Origin: a virus
DNA: 29,612 bases
IMG/VR virus record: IMGVR_UViG_3300036402_000304
Span: 1 to 29,612 of that record
Strand: one strand, 5' to 3'
In this document: positions 1 through 24,396 of the stretch, piece by piece
Layout of the letters: each line of letters opens with the position of its first letter
Position numbering within the stretch: the stretch's first letter is position 1
The notes under the pieces: generated by a model
What the model was told of the DNA's origin: nothing
What the model saw: only the letters and a program-made list of their open reading frames with translations
The model's database searches: none
Position numbers and translations under genes: made by a program

Positions 1-84
1 TTGACACGTCGGGCAAATCACCGGCATACATTCACATCGCAAGAACTCAAAAGCCCGCACCGGAAGACCGGGGGCGGGCTTTTT
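1..84 (+). repeat. Promoter-terminator repeat, copy 1
   Basis: First of five copies of a roughly 85-bp element. It opens with TTGACA at 1-6, has an 18-bp spacer holding the invariant CGTCGGGCAAATCAC, and then CATACA at 25-30 in the -10 position. About 23 bases later comes a GC-rich hairpin (53-79) followed by a T-run at 80-84, the form of an intrinsic terminator. If both parts work, the product is an RNA of about 45 nt. This copy has the weakest -10 and diverges most (CCGGCAT instead of CCTGCAT). The promoter and terminator roles are inferred from consensus only. Confidence 0.75.
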
Positions 85-3703: not shown

Positions 3704-4279
3704 ATGTCAAAAATGTCCTTATCCGATCTCAAATCCATGCTCGCCTCCGAAAAAGCCGACGCACTAGCCGGCATCTCGGCGGCACGGTTGATGGAAGAGC
3801 GCGCCGATGCGATGGATTATTACCTCGGCGATATGCGCAAGGACATGCCGGCGCAGGACGGCCGTTCGCGGGCGGTCTCGACCGATGTCGCCGACATCAT
3901 CGAAGGCCTGATGCCGTCGCTGATGGATATCTTTGCCGGGTCCGACGAAGTCGTCCGCTTCGAACCGGTGGGGCCCGAGGACGAAGCGGCGGCACAGCAG
4001 GAAACCGATTACGTCAACCACGTTTTTATGCAGCAAAATCCCGGCTTTATGGTGTTGTATTCCTTCATCAAGGACGCGCTGCTTTCCAAGGTCGGAATCG
4101 TAAAGGTGTGGTGGGAGGAGCGTGAGGAAGAGAGCCGCGAAACTTATTACGATCTCACCGACGACCAGTTCGCGCTGTTGGCGCAGGCCGTGACGGAATC
4201 CAACGGCGCGATGAAGATCGTGGCGCATACGGTGCACGGGGTAGGCGATGTGGCGGAAGAATCGAAAGTGATCAGTTGA
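3704..4279 (+). pseudogene. Portal protein, N-terminal fragment
   Basis: Start of a P22-like portal protein, the ring at the head vertex through which DNA enters and leaves. ATG 3704 opens MSKMSLSDLKSMLASEKADA, followed by the helical region and the wing domain, with the typical DVADIIEGLMPSLMDIFAG at residues 66-84. Homology stops at about residue 190 (ESKVI). The frame then ends at TGA 4277-4279, inside the foreign segment 4271-5231. The second half lies at 5235-6812. Removing 961 bp between two GATCA copies rejoins the halves in frame into about 715 residues, close to the P22 portal's 725. Confidence 0.85.
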
Positions 4280-4468
4280 AAATGTGTGGGCCGTGTTCGG
4301 GCTTATGGCCACGAAAAATGGGAAGAGGCCCAAGGAAGCAGGGCGAAGCCGCCGAGTGCCCAGGCAAGTATAATACGATCATTAAGGACCCCTTTTCTCG
4401 ATACTGTCTGCCGGCTTCTGTGAGGCATGCAGGGTCGATCGCGCTCGCATCGCTCAGGACACGAAGGC

Positions 4469-4621
4469 TCAAAAAGTAGAAGCCAAAAGGCTCTTGTGTT
4501 TCCAGGTCTTGCCTGAAGCAAGGCTGTTGTAGATCAAACGGGTGAAATTCAGGTTTCGTCCTGCAAGAAACAGAACTCCGCAGCCCCAAGCCACGACGAA
4601 GCTGATGGCAACATAGGTCAT
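4469..4621 (-). CDS. 50-residue membrane protein
   Basis: On the minus strand, ATG at 4621-4619 starts a frame encoding MTYVAISFVVAWGCGVLFLA followed by a polar, basic tail ending in LLASTF. The first 20 residues form one clear transmembrane helix. The sequence upstream on that strand has CGGAG about 7 bases before the start, a reasonable ribosome-binding site. It is the only minus-strand gene in this part and lies within the portal insertion, so it is probably accessory cargo. I do not recognise the family. Confidence 0.5.
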   Translation of the reverse strand: MTYVAISFVVAWGCGVLFLAGRNLNFTRLIYNSLASGKTWKHKSLLASTF

Positions 4622-4745
4622 TGCGAACTCCGTTTCTCGACCTGCCAGCGCGCACTGCCATCGTTGCTTCTATTGGCCCTGGCTGCGCGTCGCGTGCTTA
4701 TCGCTTCTTTAATATCAAAGGGTACGAGCCCATGTCGGTCAATGA

Positions 4746-5106
4746 AATGGGAATCCCCGACCGGATGGATATTCTGCAACGTTACCGTTCGTTGGAATAG
4801 GCGGGACCTATTACGTGAACCCAGGCTCACCTACGGCTCCCAAGGTCACGCTGACAGGCGGCCTCGGCCTAGGCGGAGGTGGAGTGCATTCCACCTTTCC
4901 AAGAAAGGGATTGACCGTCGGTCGGGTTCCTTGAATCGGGCGATCAGGATTCGTTCGGCGGCGGAATGCTCGGCTGGCAGGCGTCGGTAGACGGCGTGGA
5001 TCCGCGGTCGCCAACTGCACCGATTCCGCCGCAGCAGCCAGCATCGGAACCGAATGGGTTGCTCGGGCGCCTGCTGGAGTACCAGCGCACTGACCGCGGC
5101 TACTGA
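4746..5106 (+). pseudogene. Decayed accessory gene with GLLGRLL C-terminus
   Basis: Two consecutive frames look coding. The first (4746 to about 4930) reads PFVGIGGTYYVNPGSPTAPK and a glycine-rich run (GGLGLGGGG). The second (about 4930-5106) reads SGDQDSFGGGMLGWQ, a proline-rich stretch, and ends NGLLGRLLEYQRTDRGY. The change of frame near 4930 and the lack of a start mark it as a relic. The closing motif resembles GGLLGRLLALQAEQSGY in the gene at 17315 and GGLRGRLLSL at 20040-20105. Function is unknown. It could be the tail end of a virion-associated cargo protein. Confidence 0.4.
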
Positions 5107-5159
5107 GAAGCGGCCGCTCGCTTGCGGATTTTGTCGCCGCCCCATTTCCAAACCTAGTA

Positions 5160-6812
5160 TTGACAGACGAGCTCATGAATATGCCCATTCCCTTGCTTTC
5201 CTTGCCGGTGCCGGCCCTAGCTGTGTCCCCGATCACGCACGACGTCACCATCGTCTCCACGCGAAAAGTCGCCCAGGCCAAGGTGCTCGGCGTGCCACCG
5301 GAAGAGTTCGGCATCGAGCGCGGCGCGCGCAGCATCCGCGACTGCAACTACTGCTTCCACGAGGTCGTCACCAAGACCGAAGGGCAGCTGATCGCTGAAG
5401 GTTTTGATCAGGAACAGATCAGGTCGCTCGGCGACACCGCAGGCAATGCTGACACCGAGAGGCGTTCCCGAGATAGCGGCGCCAGCGGTGTGAACTCAGC
5501 GGCGCGGCTGGTGCGCATCACCGAGCATTACGTGCGGATGGACTACGAAGGTAGCGGCCGGCCCGGCCTCTACCAGGTCATTAGCGGTGGCGACCAAAGC
5601 GAGATCCTGCGCAAGGATGGCCGTGAGTGCGTTACCCCGTTCGACGCCATCCCGTTTGCGACGACGACACCAGTGCCGGTGACGCATCGGTTCTTCGGCC
5701 GATCGATCGCCGATCTCGTGATGCCCCTGCAGCGGGAGAAAACCGCCTTGAAGCGTGGCGCGCTGGACAATCTCTATTTGCATAACAATCCGCGGGTCGA
5801 AGTGGCCGAATCCAACGCCGGGCCGAATACGCTCGACGATTTGCTGGTGTCGCGCCCGGGCGGGGTGGTCCGCACCAAGACCGCCGGCGGACTGAATTGG
5901 CAGGTGGTGCCTGACATTACCACGTCGATCTACCCGATGTTGCAGTATATCGATGCCGAGTTGGAAACCCGCAGCGGACTGGCCCGGCAAAGCCAGGGAA
6001 TCGATGCCAACGCGCTGCAGAACCAATCCGCCACCGCGGTGGCGCAGGTGTTCTCGGCCTCGCAAATGCGCATCAAACTGATCGCCCGCATCATGGCCGA
6101 AGGCGTGCGGGATATCTTCGCGCTGCTGCACGGCACGATCCGAAAGCACGGCCAGATGCGAGAGACGGTGCGGCTGCGCAATGCTTGGGTCGATGTCGAT
6201 CCGCGCAGCTGGAAAACCCGTAATGATATGATCATCAATGTGGGCCTGGGCGCCGGTGGCAAGGCGCAGCAGTTCGCGCAGGTGATGGCGCTCGCCAATA
6301 TCCAGAAGCAACTGGTGGCGGGCGGCAAGGCGCATCTGGTCGGCGACCGCGAGCTTTACAATACCGCGGCGGAACTGACCAAGATCATGGGGCACAAGAA
6401 TCCCGACCGGTTCTTTTGCGATCCCACCGCTACCGATCCGCAAACCGGCCAATTGCTAAATCCGCCGCCGCCGCCGGCACTACCGCCCGATCCAAAATTG
6501 CTGGCGCTGCAAGCGAAGGCACAGGCCGACCAGGCTGCCGCCGCGCACAAGTCGCAGTTCGAGCAGCAGAGGGCGCAGAACGACGCCATCCACCAGCAGG
6601 TCAAGACCCAGGCGGAGATCGAGCTAGCAAAGATCAAGGCTGAGCTCGACGCCCGGATGAAACTGCTGGACGCGCATCTGAAGGCATCGGATGAGGCGAC
6701 GAAGCCGCGGCCTTTCCATCCAGCGGGCGCGCGGAAAGCCAGCGATGGCCACCACTATGTTGTGGACCCGAAGCGGCCCGGCAAACACTTATTGGTGGTT
6801 CATCATGGCTGA
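5160..6812 (+). pseudogene. Portal protein, C-terminal fragment
   Basis: An open frame of 550 codons from TTG 5160. The first 25 residues come from the insertion; portal homology starts at THDVTIVSTRK. Recognisable portal features follow: EEFGIERGARSIRDCNYCFHEV, the stem and crown region (SRPGGVVRTKT to ELETRSGLARQSQGID), and an alanine/glutamine-rich coiled coil at roughly residues 440-510 behind a proline run. The end overlaps the next gene's ATG by 8 bases. Without its N-terminal 190 residues this cannot form a normal portal ring. The long antisense frame opposite 5496-6452 is a codon-bias shadow. Confidence 0.85.
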
Positions 6813-7146
6813 TTTTTCTCTGGTGCCTGTCGACTATCAGCCGGATTTCTCCGACTTCTCACTCGTTCCGGTAGACTATGATCCGTTCGGTGCCGATGGC
6901 GCACAACAGCCAGGGATGCGACGGGGAAGCCAGGCCCAGCCACCGGCTACGGGAGCCGTTTACCTCGATATCGGCGGCCAATTCTCGGATGGCGACAAGA
7001 CGGCCGATATCGCAAGAAGCGGTATCGGCGGTGCGCCGAGGCTCGCGCCATCGGTCGCACCATCCGATGGCTATGCAGGCAAATCGGAGTGCAATTGCCG
7101 GAGTTCGCAGCTGGATACGGCGGCATCTATGGTCAAGCGAGCCTAG
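6805..7146 (+). pseudogene. Accessory virion-type protein, decayed after N-terminus
   Basis: ATG 6805 overlaps the portal stop by 8 bases and starts a protein with a tandem N-terminal duplication: DFSLVPVDY at residues 3-11 and again at 17-25, joined by QPDFS. I remember this N-terminus from larger prophage proteins of Bradyrhizobium with variable C-terminal parts. Here the frame ends at 7146, but a good continuation (QLPEFAAGYGGIYGQASLGQ) appears in another frame from 7089, so a frameshift lies near 7080. That second frame stays open to 7436, though its later part is not convincing. It is probably the remnant of a multi-domain cargo gene. Duplicated portal 3' ends lie on both sides of it. 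Confidence 0.5.
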
Positions 7147-7442
7147 GACAGTCGCTGAGCGATGGTTACAGAGCCGATGTCCCTTATTGGTCAAAGTCAT
7201 CCAAAACCGGATCAAACCTACAACAATTTAGCATGGCCAGTCACGCTGCCTATAGTAGATGCGTGGACAAGTGCTTACACTTGCTGCCTTTGCCTAGCGG
7301 TGACTTGTTCGGAATTTCGGCTGTGTGTAGCCCGATGCATGGGACGTCTCTGATGGATATCCAAACTGGTTGGCAACCGGCGGCAATGGCCTTGGCACGA
7401 GGTGCGTTGCGCGACATCGCCGAAGAGACCGCGTAAAGCTGG

Positions 7443-7620
7443 AAACCCAGAGATTGAGCTGGCAAAGATCACGGCCGAGCTCGCTGCCAAAATGGCGCTG
7501 CTCGATGCCCATCTGAAGACGGCCGGCGAAACGTAGAAGGCGCAGCGTTCCCACGTGCTTGGACCCGGGAGCCGAGGGACGGGGCCATTATGTTGAAGAC
7601 CCGGGCCGGCCTGGCAGAAG
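7443..7620 (+). pseudogene. Second, degenerate portal 3' end
   Basis: From 7443 the frame reads PEIELAKITAELAAKMALLD and AHLKTAGE, then TAG. This parallels AEIELAKIKAELDARMKLLD and AHLKASDE near the C-terminus of the portal gene (about 6613-6700). Nucleotide similarity continues beyond the stop: the segment around 7585-7620 (TATGTTGAAGACCCGGGCCG) mirrors TATGTTGTGGACCCGAAGCG near 6760. It is therefore a diverged duplicate of the portal's last 60 codons, with a premature stop and indels. Together with the intact copy it brackets the accessory gene at 6805. Confidence 0.7.
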
Positions 7621-7818: not shown

Positions 7819-8118
7819 ATGTCTGATGAGAACAGGCTTGACGAGGCTGCGGCAAAGGCGGTCCGCGCCCAGCAATTGCTCGACAACGATCTGCTGAGAG
7901 AAGCATTCGCCGAACTCGAGCAAAACTACACTGCGGCATGGCGGGCCACCACGATCGATGATGTCGGCGGGAGAGAGAAATTATTTCTTGCCATCAATGT
8001 TGTCGGCAAGGTGCGCGATCATCTGGGCGCCATCATCGCCAACGGAAAGCTGGCGCAGGCTGAACTAAAGGAGCTGTCGCAGGTAGCCGAACGCAGGAAG
8101 CGGTTTGGGATCGTGTGA
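7819..8118 (+). CDS. Conserved phage protein between portal and capsid
   Basis: A 99-residue acidic, helical protein (MSDENRLDEAAAKAVRAQQL to AERRKRFGIV). ATG 7819 is chosen because AAGGAGG lies 9 bases upstream; the open frame extends back to 7633, but that part looks unlike protein. The sequence is mostly amphipathic helix with a long C-terminal coiled coil (LAQAELKELSQVAERRKR). I remember similar small proteins in prophages of this type between portal and capsid genes. The function is not known to me; an assembly or packaging accessory role would fit its position. Confidence 0.65.
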   Translation: MSDENRLDEAAAKAVRAQQLLDNDLLREAFAELEQNYTAAWRATTIDDVGGREKLFLAINVVGKVRDHLGAIIANGKLAQAELKELSQVAERRKRFGIV

Positions 8119-8415: not shown

Positions 8416-8470
8416 GCCAAACGTCGCGGCACCCAATTCACGAATTGTGCCTCTGACCTGATTTCAGGAT

Positions 8471-8552
8471 TTGACACGTCGGGCAAATCACCTGCATAAT
8501 TTCATCATCGCAAGAATTGAGCCCGCGCCGGGAAACTGGCCGCGGGCTTTCT
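8471..8552 (+). repeat. Promoter-terminator repeat, copy 4
   Basis: TTGACA at 8471-8476, an 18-bp spacer, and CATAAT at 8495-8500, the best -10 of the five copies. The hairpin GCCCGCG/CGCGGGC spans 8521-8547, followed by a poor T-run (TTTCTCT), so termination may be leaky here. It lies 55 bases after the 63-residue gene. Confidence 0.8.
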
Positions 8553-8562
8553 CTCGCCCGGT

Positions 8563-8748: not shown

Positions 8749-8832
8749 TTGACACGTCGGGCAAATCACCTGCATAAATCCATCATCGCAAGAATTGAGC
8801 CCGCGCCCGGATAGCCGATCGCGGGCTTTTTT
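8749..8832 (+). repeat. Promoter-terminator repeat, copy 5
   Basis: TTGACA at 8749-8754, an 18-bp spacer, CATAAA at 8773-8778, then hairpin arms GCCCGCG (8799-8805) and CGCGGGC (8820-8826) and six T at 8827-8832. It sits about 290 bases before the capsid gene. Between it and ATG 9124 I see no gene, only a leader. Confidence 0.8.
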
Positions 8833-9123: not shown

Positions 9124-10086
9124 ATGGCCTTACCGACTTCCACCTTCGCCACCTACCAGGCGGTTGGCAACCGCGAAGATCTCTCTGACATGATCTATCG
9201 GATCGATCCGACCGATACGCCGTTCATGAGCAGCGTCGAGAAGGAGAAAGCGTCCGCTGTCAACCACGAATGGCAGACCCAGGCGCTCGCCGCGGCTTCC
9301 TCGGCGAATGCGCAGCTTGAAGGCGATGATCCGACCACCACCGTCACCACACCTACGGTGCGGCTCGGCAATCTCTGCCAGATCTCCTACAAGGTGGCGC
9401 GTGTGTCGGGCACCCAGCAGGCCGTCGACCATGCCGGCCGCGACAACGAACTCGCCTATCAGGAGATGTTAAAGGGCCTCGAGCTGAAGCGCGATATCGA
9501 AACCATCCTGGTCGGCACCAACCAGGCCAAGGTTGCGGGTGACACCGTCACACCGCGCAAGACCGCTTCCATTCTTTCGTGGATCGGGAGCAATACCTCG
9601 AAGAGCACGGCCGGCTCACCCGCCGATCCCTTGGCGGTCGACGGTACCGACACCCGCGACGACGGCACACCCGTCGCATTCACCGAAGCGCGGCTCAAGT
9701 CCGTGCTTTCCTCGATCTGGATCAACGGCGGCAAGCCCGGGACCATCATGACCGGCGCCTTCAACAAGCAGGTGTTCTCGACTTTCACCGGCCGGGCCAC
9801 TGCGGTCGAGGAGGCCAAATCGAAGAAGATCGTGGCTTCAGTCGACGCCTACGAATCCGATTTCGGCAAGCTCAAGGTGGTGGCGAACCGCTTCCAGCGT
9901 CCGCGTGACGTACTGGTGCTGGAGATGGACAAGTGGGCGGTGGCCTATCTCAACGGGCGCAACATGCTCTCCATCCCGCTGGCGAAATCCGGTGATTCCG
10001 ACCGGTGCCAGATCCTGGCGGAATACGCGCTGGTTGCCCGCAACGAGAAAGCCTCCGGCGGCGTGTTCGACAACACCGCGTCCTGA
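9124..10086 (+). CDS. Major capsid protein, SU10/DUF5309-like
   Basis: A 320-residue protein that forms the icosahedral shell. It starts MALPTSTFATYQAVGNREDL and has the expected early motif (RIDPTDTPFMSSVEKEKA, residues 28-45), followed by HEWQTQAL, a beta-rich domain with GNLCQISYKVARVSGTQQAV, a long spine helix (ELAYQEMLKGLELKRDIETI, about residues 109-130), and a C-terminal region with IMTGAFNKQVFSTF and a receptor-like end (EYALVARNEKASGGV). Length and order fit the DUF5309 family of major head proteins. ATG 9124 is preceded by AGGGAAA. The frame is intact. It opens the coupled virion module that runs to 16156. Confidence 0.9.
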   Translation: MALPTSTFATYQAVGNREDLSDMIYRIDPTDTPFMSSVEKEKASAVNHEWQTQALAAASSANAQLEGDDPTTTVTTPTVRLGNLCQISYKVARVSGTQQAVDHAGRDNELAYQEMLKGLELKRDIETILVGTNQAKVAGDTVTPRKTASILSWIGSNTSKSTAGSPADPLAVDGTDTRDDGTPVAFTEARLKSVLSSIWINGGKPGTIMTGAFNKQVFSTFTGRATAVEEAKSKKIVASVDAYESDFGKLKVVANRFQRPRDVLVLEMDKWAVAYLNGRNMLSIPLAKSGDSDRCQILAEYALVARNEKASGGVFDNTAS

Positions 10087-22026: not shown

Positions 22027-23244
22027 ATGGCCGACGAACCGGATTCCGCGCTGACCGGCGCTGCCTTTGAACTTGCTAATGCCGGCTTCAAGCCGATGCC
22101 GGATACCGAGAGAAAAGACGACAAGAACGACGAAGAGGCAATCGGTGGTGATAGCGCTTCCTTGCGCGAAGCGGCAGAGCAGCGCTCTAGCCCGAGCCAC
22201 GAAATCCTCGCAAGGGAGTATATCGGCGGCGACGGCAAGCCCGCCGACGCGAACCTGGCAATCACACTCGATCGCGCCGCGCGTGATTATGCCGGTGCCG
22301 CTGCTGCCGATATGTTCGTCATAGAGAATGAATCAAGTAAGGCGCTGGCCGCGCGGGTCGACTCCTTGCGTGCCCAAGCCATGGCCGCCGATCCTGATGC
22401 CGCCGAACTTTACGGGTTTAAGCCACCGCAGGACGAGGCTGATAAAAGCAACTCCGAAAAGCCCGAATCCAGAATGGCACAAACCGATCCGGTCGGCGCG
22501 AGCAACGGCGGCATGGACGGCCTCGCTTCTGAAATCGAGAAGGCTATGCAGCATCCGCAGGTGCGTCAGGCCATCGAGGAAAAGATTGGAGAAGCCGAAA
22601 GGACGAGGCAAGACTATCGCAACGGGCTGGCGGCGGCGACGCAGATCGCGCAGGTTAGTTTTGTCGGCCAGTTTCCAGAACTGGCGAGCATCGCGCCGGA
22701 AAACCTGCCGGGCGCGCTCGAACTGATGTCGCGGCAGGATCCGGCAAAATTCGCGCGCGTCGAGGCGATGATCGCGACCACCGAACGCCTGTTCGCGCAC
22801 CAGGCGCAGGAGAGCCGGCGCCAAACCGAACTGGCGCAGCAGAACTTTCAAGACTATGCGAGATCGGAGGACGCTCGTTTCGAAAATATGCTGAAAGGCG
22901 AATCGAAGGAAGCCCAGCATGCCGTCACCGCCGAAATTTTTGCGTCGGCCAGCGCCAGCGGAGTCGAGCCCGCCGAGCTGATCAGGCTGTTCAACTCAGA
23001 GCCGCTGATGCGCAATGCGGCGTTCCAGCGCATGATGTATGACGCCGGAAAGTATCGCCTGATGCTGAAAGCCAGAGACGCGGCTGCTGCCAGGCCGGTG
23101 CCGCCGGTGCAGCGGCCGGGCATGGCGCGAACGGCTGCCGAGCGCGAACCAGATTTGCGGACGCTCAACGCGCGGCTATCGAGCTCGGGCGATATCAGAG
23201 ATGCGGTGGCGCTGTATCATGCGCGCAAATCCAGCAAGCGCTAG
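22027..23244 (+). CDS. Capsid scaffold-type protein, full length
   Basis: A 405-residue, acidic, mostly helical protein, as expected for an internal scaffold that guides capsid assembly. Residues 1-150 are polar and variable. Residues 160-300 are a long helical part (KAMQHPQVRQAIEEKIGEAE, then FPELASIAPENLPGALELMS and FAHQAQESRRQTELAQQNFQ). A proline linker (PVPPVQRPGMART) leads to a conserved C-terminal hook (LSSSGDIRDAVALYHARK) that probably binds the capsid protein. Such genes normally lie directly before the capsid gene; here it is 12 kb downstream, while two 3' relics lie at 882-986 and 8563-8746. The family is assigned from composition and remembered homologues. Confidence 0.65.
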   Translation: MADEPDSALTGAAFELANAGFKPMPDTERKDDKNDEEAIGGDSASLREAAEQRSSPSHEILAREYIGGDGKPADANLAITLDRAARDYAGAAAADMFVIENESSKALAARVDSLRAQAMAADPDAAELYGFKPPQDEADKSNSEKPESRMAQTDPVGASNGGMDGLASEIEKAMQHPQVRQAIEEKIGEAERTRQDYRNGLAAATQIAQVSFVGQFPELASIAPENLPGALELMSRQDPAKFARVEAMIATTERLFAHQAQESRRQTELAQQNFQDYARSEDARFENMLKGESKEAQHAVTAEIFASASASGVEPAELIRLFNSEPLMRNAAFQRMMYDAGKYRLMLKARDAAAARPVPPVQRPGMARTAAEREPDLRTLNARLSSSGDIRDAVALYHARKSSKR

Positions 23245-23871: not shown

Positions 23872-24396
23872 GTGATGGGAAGCCCGGTACTGGCTGCACT
23901 GGCGCAGGCGCGAATGCGCGCCGCGCCGATGTTTGCGAAATGGTGCGAGCTGAACGGCGCCACCTGGTGCCCGGCGGCGCCTGCCGATGTCGCGAGATTT
24001 GTCGCCGATGGTGCCGCGCTCGGCATTGACCGGCTGTGGCCGGCCGTGCAGGAAATCTCGAAAGCGCACAGCTCGCTCGGGCTCGCCGATCCGACGCTCG
24101 GCAGCGTTGCGGCCGCGGTCATCAACGAGGTCGGAGGCGTTGCGCCACCACGCTCGTGGCCCGATGACCGCAAGCAGCGTTTTACGTTGCTGCCATACGA
24201 TCTGCAGGTCTATGTCGCGGCTCACGAAGAGCAGCGGGAGAAGGCGCTGCGACGCGCCCAGAACGAAGCGGCCATCGCCAAGCAAAAACTCGTGGCACTG
24301 CAAGCGCGGCAACCCGCCAGAACCGGCGAAACAGCAGAAGGAGCAACAGGCAATGATCGCAAGGGACGTGAAACCGATTCGAACGCCACCGCTTGA
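23872..24396 (+). CDS. Conserved prophage protein, SAM-like N-domain
   Basis: 174 residues from GTG 23872, or 173 from ATG 23875. Residues 15-85 (MFAKWCELNGATWCPAAPAD, VARFVADGAALGIDRLWPAV, then LADPTLGSVAAAVINEVGG) follow the helical pattern of the core-binding domain of tyrosine recombinases. No catalytic domain follows, so it is not an integrase. After LLPYDLQVYVAAHEEQREKA comes a coiled coil (residues 115-145). It probably acts as a DNA- or protein-binding adaptor. It lies in a coupled trio; its end overlaps the next gene by 44 bases. Confidence 0.6.
   Translation: MMGSPVLAALAQARMRAAPMFAKWCELNGATWCPAAPADVARFVADGAALGIDRLWPAVQEISKAHSSLGLADPTLGSVAAAVINEVGGVAPPRSWPDDRKQRFTLLPYDLQVYVAAHEEQREKALRRAQNEAAIAKQKLVALQARQPARTGETAEGATGNDRKGRETDSNATA

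What the first reader, a model, noticed from the sequence alone, without database searches (positions are those of the whole stretch)
6600..7620. Accessory gene bracketed by two copies of the portal 3' end
The last part of the portal (about 6600-6800) recurs in degenerate form at 7443-7620, and the accessory gene at 6805 lies between them. The scaffold relics show the same pattern. This suggests a general route in which cargo enters behind a structural gene by recombination that brings its own copy of that gene's 3' end, leaving the old end as a relic downstream.
Basis: partly seen in the sequence, partly recalled or inferred. Interest (0 to 1): 0.6.

Follow-up and report, generated by a model that had tools for sequence, protein, structure and literature searches.

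The report
Phage toxin cassettes behind portal gene
In a family of soil-bacterium prophages, toxin genes appear to be added one after another behind the portal gene, each carrying its own copy of the portal's end, and that portal end seems to be paired with a short tag on the toxin, which may be how the phage loads its cargo.

Summary
The duplication is real: window 6615-6783 and 7450-7616 are 68.6% identical over 169 nt, far beyond shuffled sequence. The bracketed gene is a frame-broken member of a tagged cargo family. In 107 related loci (mostly Bradyrhizobium prophages) the site is either empty, with portal end type E, or loaded, with portal end type L whose stop overlaps a cargo gene starting MxD[FY]SLVPV[DE]HQPDF. 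Cargo C-terminal domains vary (HYD1 ADP-ribosyltransferase, HNH, WHH, DUF4329, NucA/NucB-like, CHAP-like); five of ten tested neighbours match families, including SUKH-1 and ComJ: a polymorphic-toxin layout. In arrays, later cargo genes usually follow a 5'-truncated portal end. Portal fragments lie downstream in 25 of 32 loaded but 1 of 48 unloaded loci; five loaded loci keep the displaced E end. Further, 65 of 69 distinct L-tail genes, on portals of several families and on virion lysozymes, are followed by a tagged gene (control 4 of 497). I infer a tail-tag pair that docks cargo in the virion. Docking and toxicity are untested.

The parts
3704..4279 (+). N-terminal part of the split portal (separate ORF)
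   Evidence: [quoted passage not shown] that portal matches PF23899 positions 2-590; ORF stop at 4279
5160..6812 (+). C-terminal part of the portal, ending in the L-type tail
   Evidence: PF23899 SU10_portal 7.3e-123, profile positions 175-590
6717..6809 (+). L-type tail (GARKASDGHHYVVDPKRPGKHLLVV), predicted small hairpin, proposed docking site
   Evidence: aligned with tails of unrelated carriers; hairpin in the L004 model
6805..6900 (+). tag at the start of the cargo gene (SLVPVDYQPDF..SLVPVDYDPF)
   Evidence: tag present in 42 of 107 related loci
6805..7353 (+). remnant of the cargo gene, frame-disrupted, Cys-rich C-terminal type
   Evidence: tblastn of L056 and L028 cargo against the window
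7323..7367 (+). start of the ORF that follows this cargo in relatives (immunity candidate), cut short
   Evidence: 15 codons match L056 and L028
7450..7616 (+). relic of an older portal 3' end, L-type, with a stop and frame changes
   Evidence: best match L083 tail, 82% over 100 nt
7819..8118 (+). next gene (99 aa, phrog_8161, unknown function) that directly follows the portal in empty loci
9124..10086 (+). major capsid protein
   Evidence: PF17236 7.8e-95

Best explanation
The window holds a decayed example of a phage polymorphic-toxin cassette. A cassette is a DNA block made of the 3' end of the portal gene (with a special L-type tail), a cargo gene whose start overlaps the portal stop, and often an immunity-like gene. 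SHOWN: cassettes with different C-terminal domains sit at one site in related prophages; portal-end fragments occur behind cargo and hardly ever without it; displaced empty-type ends survive as relics in five loci. INFERRED: recombination with a related phage within the portal's 3' part puts a new tail and cargo in front and leaves the old portal end, with any older cargo, as an orphan downstream, as in CDI and Rhs orphan arrays. INFERRED, less certain: the cassette has to bring its own portal end because the L-type tail is the docking partner of the repeated PVDHDPF-type tag on the cargo. The portal's C-terminal end is expected to face the capsid interior (recalled), so the tail would hold the cargo inside the head for ejection with the DNA, and the lysogen would be protected by the immunity gene.
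For: Duplication beyond chance. Tag in 42 of 107 loci behind an L-type portal end. Varied toxin-type C-terminal domains in 25 clusters; of ten neighbouring ORFs scanned, five match DUF6881, SUKH-1, ComJ, DUF4265, DUF6794; one WHH domain shared with plasmid RHS proteins. Portal fragments in 25 of 32 loaded against 1 of 48 unloaded loci; E-type relics in L009, L016, L018, L023, L087. E/L state changes at least 11 times on the portal tree. Sister L083 lacks the insert. Tail-tag pairing: 65 of 69 tails followed by a tag gene against 4 of 497 control ORF ends; 71 of 77 tag starts preceded by a tail; pair found on portals of three PHROG families and on lysozyme-type virion proteins and in the isolated phage Pam5.
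Against: No experiment: packaging, docking, toxicity and immunity are all untested. The window's own relic is L-type, so the displaced-empty-end pattern is read from relatives. In 12 of 34 fragments the own portal is the best match, as in-place duplication would give. 7 of 32 loaded loci show no downstream portal fragment. Five of ten neighbouring ORFs match no family. The portal model is weak (mean pLDDT 54.4, pTM 0.30). The relaxed tag pattern was widened after looking at the misses. Tail and tag adjacency could be linkage without binding.
Confidence: 0.75

Rival explanations
1. The second portal end arose by tandem duplication in place (unequal crossing over in one phage lineage), and the cargo was already there; no import is involved.
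For: In 12 of 34 fragments the locus's own portal is the closest of all portals, for example L091 at 96% and L105 at 92%.
Against: In 22 of 34 fragments another locus's portal is closer. Five loaded loci have an E-type relic behind an L-type portal, so two lineages took part. In the window the two copies differ by 27% over the coil while the relic is nearer L083 and the live tail nearer L003 (small numbers).
Confidence: 0.15
2. The tail and the tag travel together only because they are neighbours: the portal end is a homology handle and a translational coupler, with no physical docking.
For: The portal stop overlaps the cargo start, and portal ends are long enough to serve as recombination sites. 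All evidence for docking is genomic.
Against: The same tail sits on portal families that do not share sequence and on lysozyme-type proteins, so a portal homology handle cannot explain it. The tail has invariant residues in A, D, Y, DP, R, GK and is C-terminal in 215 of 218 frames. Tags are repeated.
Confidence: 0.3
3. The cargo is not delivered by the virion: it is a lysis-released bacteriocin or a plain toxin-antitoxin module kept by addiction, parked behind a late gene for expression timing.
For: Toxin-immunity pairing as such does not require delivery; no virion proteomics was available.
Against: The conserved N-terminal tag with variable C-terminal domain is the layout of delivered polymorphic toxins. 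Carriers of the tail that can be named are virion proteins. Distant cargo includes ART-PolyVal, a family described for proteins expected to be injected (PMC5512222, passages).
Confidence: 0.2
4. The similarity is chance or coiled-coil composition.
For: The portal tail is predicted as one long helix, residues 450-517 in L004.
Against: Nucleotide alignment score 66 against a shuffle maximum of 34; the similarity includes the non-helical end motif; the sister L083 matches the relic at 82% over 100 nt in the colinear place.
Confidence: 0.01

Closest known systems
MuF polymorphic toxins of temperate phages (Jamet et al. 2017, PMC5576092; abstract and Discussion read; Bxa/Apk2 work, PMC11699363, passages read)
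   Same: Phage-encoded polymorphic toxins in the head-packaging region, with neighbouring immunity genes, proposed to be loaded in the head and injected.
   Different: No MuF domain in 20 cargo proteins scanned. Here a short repeated tag and a separate portal-tail partner take its place, and arrays keep portal-end scars.
CDI and Rhs orphan toxin/immunity arrays (PMC4927057, passages read)
   Same: New toxin end displaces the old one downstream; orphans keep homology to the upstream gene; tandem arrays.
   Different: The shared gene is a phage portal, not the toxin carrier itself; the toxin is a separate ORF; setting is the phage late operon.
Polyvalent proteins of phages (Iyer et al. 2017, PMC5512222, passages read)
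   Same: Multi-domain proteins near portal genes expected to be packaged and injected; ART-PolyVal domain in L163 and L176.
   Different: Bradyrhizobium cargo is mostly one toxin domain plus immunity gene; no tail-tag pair appeared in the passages I read.
SU10-like podovirus portal (PMC9509320, passages and portal section read)
   Same: Portal family PF23899; density inside the portal barrel assigned to the DNA end or ejection proteins.
   Different: The portal here runs about 90 aa beyond the SU10 profile match and is split into two ORFs.

Membership tests
Polymorphic toxin system | Constant N-terminal trafficking region with varied C-terminal toxin domains | tested here: met
   Tag conserved, 25 C-terminal clusters among 45 distinct proteins of 100 aa or more; toxin-type Pfam domains
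Polymorphic toxin system | Adjacent immunity gene | tested here: met
   Five of ten neighbouring ORFs match families such as SUKH-1 and ComJ; five have no match. Protection itself not tested
Polymorphic toxin system | Toxic to bacteria | not testable with these tools
   needs expression
MuF toxins | N-terminal MuF domain | tested here: not met
   No MuF match in 20 cargo proteins against Pfam
CDI/Rhs-type orphan array | Orphan modules that carry the 3' end of the upstream gene | tested here: met
   25 of 32 loaded against 1 of 48 unloaded loci; arrays
Polyvalent proteins | Two to fifteen domains in one polypeptide | tested here: inconclusive
   L024 has two tagged units in one ORF, L163 two ART-PolyVal stretches; most Bradyrhizobium cargo shows one named domain
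SU10-like portal | PF23899 match over the portal | tested here: met
   C-part 7.3e-123 in the window; N-part homologue upstream
Phage moron | Own promoter and terminator around the added gene | not tested
   No promoter or terminator scan was run

The most novel reading that the evidence does not exclude
A two-part virion address code: a C-terminal tail of about 25 residues (GARxAPDGxxYVPDPxRPGKYLxV) on whichever protein sits inside the virion (portals of several families, lysozyme-type virion proteins) binds a short repeated tag (PVDHDPF/W type) on the protein encoded next door and loads it for injection. Phages swap cargo by swapping the tail together with the tagged gene, so the scars of portal 3' ends record the order of acquisitions.
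Probability: 0.55. Interest if true: 0.87.

Novelty: new variant of a known kind. Interest (0 to 1): 0.78.

Why it matters
It explains an odd repeat as the scar of a repeatable gene-capture route in phages. It adds what looks like an undescribed set of phage-borne toxin-immunity cassettes in rhizobial prophages (27 of 265 genomes of the genus have a tag hit). It also proposes a simple, testable signal pair for loading foreign proteins into virions. How most phages choose which proteins to package and inject is poorly known (general knowledge), and a short transferable tag would make it directly testable. None of my nine literature searches listed a description of this pair by title or abstract; the library holds only part of the literature.

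Tried and rejected
Coiled-coil chance: rejected. MuF membership: rejected for lack of the domain. NCBIfam on ten cargo or neighbour proteins gave only noise. PDB sequence searches with three cargo proteins found nothing. Portal model: overall confidence too low for a fold search, so none was run; only the local prediction of the tail was used. Searching for one open frame holding both tail and tag found none. Pfam on ten ORFs between the two portal parts found nothing. Dating by divergence has little power: the shared coil is 81 nt. I did not run promoter or RNA scans, and the loci L258-L289 that came with genome searches were not analysed.

Rows dropped before counts: near-identical loci were removed (93 distinct of 107 portal loci; those with under 2 kb downstream also left out, giving 32 loaded and 48 unloaded). 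In one search, duplicate tail ends and one truncated tail end were removed. In one search, exact duplicate cores, two cores with a stop inside and incomplete cores were left out (89 rows), and the 11 rows with neither end type were not counted for the E/L changes. Cargo shorter than 100 aa was left out of the clusters.

Full report
WHAT IS IN THE WINDOW. The window is a 29,612-base virus record with an SU10-like portal (PF23899, 7.3e-123) and an SU10-like major capsid protein (PF17236, 7.8e-95). Its named relatives are mostly Bradyrhizobium prophages. The gene between starts at 6805, overlapping the portal's last codons. Relatives L055/L056 and L028 carry it as one ORF; here it is frame-disrupted, and the ORF that follows it in relatives is cut after about 15 codons. 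The repeat at 7450 has a stop and frame changes. So the window is a decayed cassette followed by a decayed portal end.

EMPTY AND LOADED RELATIVES. I fetched 80 viral and 27 genome loci with the portal as query and mapped portal, tail, cargo, next gene and capsid gene. The portal's C-terminal end comes in two main forms. The E form continues as a coil (QKMQHAQAQHQMDVAETALGMVATAHSHD...) and usually runs up to the start of the next gene, a 99-residue protein of unknown function (phrog_8161). The L form ends ...PGARKARDGHHYVPDPKRPGKYLLVVHHG, and its stop overlaps the ATG of a cargo gene starting MxD[FY]SLVPV[DE]HQPDFxxxSLVPVDHDPF. A tag was found in 42 of the 107 loci, plus the window.

CARGO. 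In these 43 loci there are 67 tag starts and 52 distinct proteins. The 45 of 100 residues or more form 25 C-terminal clusters; some are broken genes. Pfam names: Tox-ART-HYD1 (9.4e-30), HNH (1.7e-11), WHH (1.3e-13 and others) with Colicin-DNase, DUF4329 (6.1e-14), DUF4951 (1.4e-9), and, below the curated cut-off, NucA/NucB DNase and CHAP; several cargo proteins have no match. Of ten neighbouring ORFs scanned, five match families: DUF6881 after the HYD1 protein (overlapping start), SUKH-1 after WHH, ComJ after the NucA-like protein, DUF4265 after HNH, DUF6794 after a cargo of the DUF4329 cluster (cluster). That ComJ inhibits NucA and that SUKH-1 is an immunity family is recalled. The C-terminal 115 residues of one WHH cargo match plasmid proteins of Burkholderia glumae annotated as RHS (38%, 2e-13). 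This is the layout of a polymorphic toxin system; no activity was tested.

SCARS. In arrays, later cargo genes are usually preceded by a portal fragment that lacks its 5' part, with varied break points. Portal fragments downstream of the portal occur in 25 of 32 loaded and 1 of 48 unloaded distinct loci (Fisher p 2e-13), with about equal median downstream length. In L009, L016, L018, L023 and L087 an E-type end survives between the cargo and the next gene, behind an L-type portal. On a quick tree of 89 portal cores the E and L states need at least 11 changes, and well-supported branches force at least 6 for the L group.

THE WINDOW'S OWN HISTORY. L083 is a near sister of the window (portal 88.9% at nucleotide level). 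It lacks the segment between 6685 and 7450; its portal tail matches the window's relic (82% over 100 nt), and homology resumes at the next gene. Over the 81-nt coil the window's portal tail is nearest L003 (80%), a loaded relative with a different cargo, while the relic is nearest L083 (83%); the two window copies share 73%. The numbers are small. Both window ends are L-type, and L083's tail looks to me like a decayed L-type tail, so here a new cassette seems to have been set in front of an older one rather than into an E-type site.

IMPORT OR DUPLICATION. For 34 fragments I ranked all portals by similarity: the locus's own is best in 12; in 22 another locus's is best, including three with no significant hit to the own portal. 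Both processes may act; E-type relics behind L-type portals require two lineages.

THE TAIL AND TAG PAIR. A scan with the tag alignment gave 71 loci. In 22 of them (L158-L179) the portal body is not, or hardly, similar to this one, yet all 22 have an L-type tail shortly before the tag. The reverse scan with 15 tails gave 80 loci. Of 69 distinct tail-bearing ORF ends, 65 are followed by a gene start whose first 60 residues hold the tag pattern, against 4 of 497 control ORF ends in the same loci. In the forward direction 71 of 77 distinct tag starts have a tail within 330 nt upstream. The relaxed tag pattern was widened after inspecting misses; a stricter one gave 57 of 85 hits, duplicates included. 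The tail lies within 40 residues of the C-end in 215 of 218 open frames of at least 60 aa (redundant set), and no frame holds both tail and tag. Carriers that PHROGs or Pfam can name are portals (phrog_1216, phrog_156, phrog_12082) and virion lysozyme-type proteins; several carriers have no name. Cargo in distant loci includes ART-PolyVal proteins. The isolated Pseudanabaena phage Pam5 carries the pair: gp12, a tail lysozyme, ends with the tail and gp13 begins with two tags.

MECHANISM. The portal profile match ends at position 590 of 593, while the protein runs on for about 90 residues. In the L004 model this part is a long helix and a terminal hairpin of locally fair confidence; the model as a whole is poor. 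In SU10 the clip domain faces out, and density inside the portal barrel is ascribed to the DNA end or ejection proteins (PMC9509320, portal section read). That the C-terminal end follows the barrel into the capsid is recalled. I therefore infer that the L-type tail presents a docking hairpin inside the head and that the tag binds it. This would explain why cargo brings its own portal end, why the pair crosses portal families, and why tags are repeated. Adjacency alone cannot prove binding; the rival of mere linkage keeps substantial weight.

COMPARISON. It works like MuF toxins in being phage-borne toxins with immunity genes in the head region (PMC5576092, abstract and Discussion; PMC11699363, passages), but no MuF domain was found. 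The accretion works like CDI/Rhs orphan displacement (PMC4927057, passages), transplanted to a phage portal gene. Polyvalent proteins (PMC5512222, passages) overlap in some cargo domains.

DISTRIBUTION. 27 of 265 genomes of the genus have a tag hit at E up to 0.001 with one query. A class-wide tail search found 3 of 385, one being the starting genome. Among 50,697 phage records only Pam5 was found with the tail or the tag query.

VERDICT.

Noticed in passing
window 3704-5169; 89 of 107 loci: The portal is split into two ORFs (profile positions 2-163 and 175-590) with up to about 5.5 kb of other DNA between them; L083 and L106 have it as one ORF. The seam looks like a second insertion site; in L086 it holds an Ivy-like stretch.
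   Followed up: partly
between portal parts: L005 4022-4945, L041 4071-4949, L055 2196-2879, L048 2193-2954, L003 1503-1850, window 4694-4990: ORFs in the seam; by eye several share a motif like GGTYYWNPGSPTAP near the start, possibly a second cargo family with its own tag. Pfam found nothing in the ten seam ORFs scanned.
   Followed up: partly
window 1-84, 562-654, 977-1069, 8469-8553, 8749-8829: Five copies of an 85-nt repeat (80-90% identical) ending in what looks like a G+C hairpin and T run.
   Followed up: no
window 22225-23241 and 24148-24312: Weak similarity (25%, 3e-14; 33%, 0.001) to the protein encoded between the 99-aa gene and the capsid gene in phage ppBeUSDA76-2, a likely scaffold; in the window it lies far downstream.
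   Followed up: no
L291 (OP596614.1) 6001-7437: The C-terminal portal part of Bradyrhizobium phage ppBeUSDA76-2 is not annotated in the public record.
   Followed up: no
L024 2128-4518: One 796-aa ORF holds two tagged zincin-like units in tandem.
   Followed up: no
L246 and L247, 3863-4075: The carrier ends with two L-type tails in tandem.
   Followed up: no
L238 860-4114: A portal profile matched in two stretches, with a terminase- or primase-like ATPase region between them.
   Followed up: no
L018 8323-8559, L031 10107-10250, L070 and L096 5859-6035: Extra partial copies of the 99-aa gene that follows the portal, so relics are not confined to the portal end.
   Followed up: no
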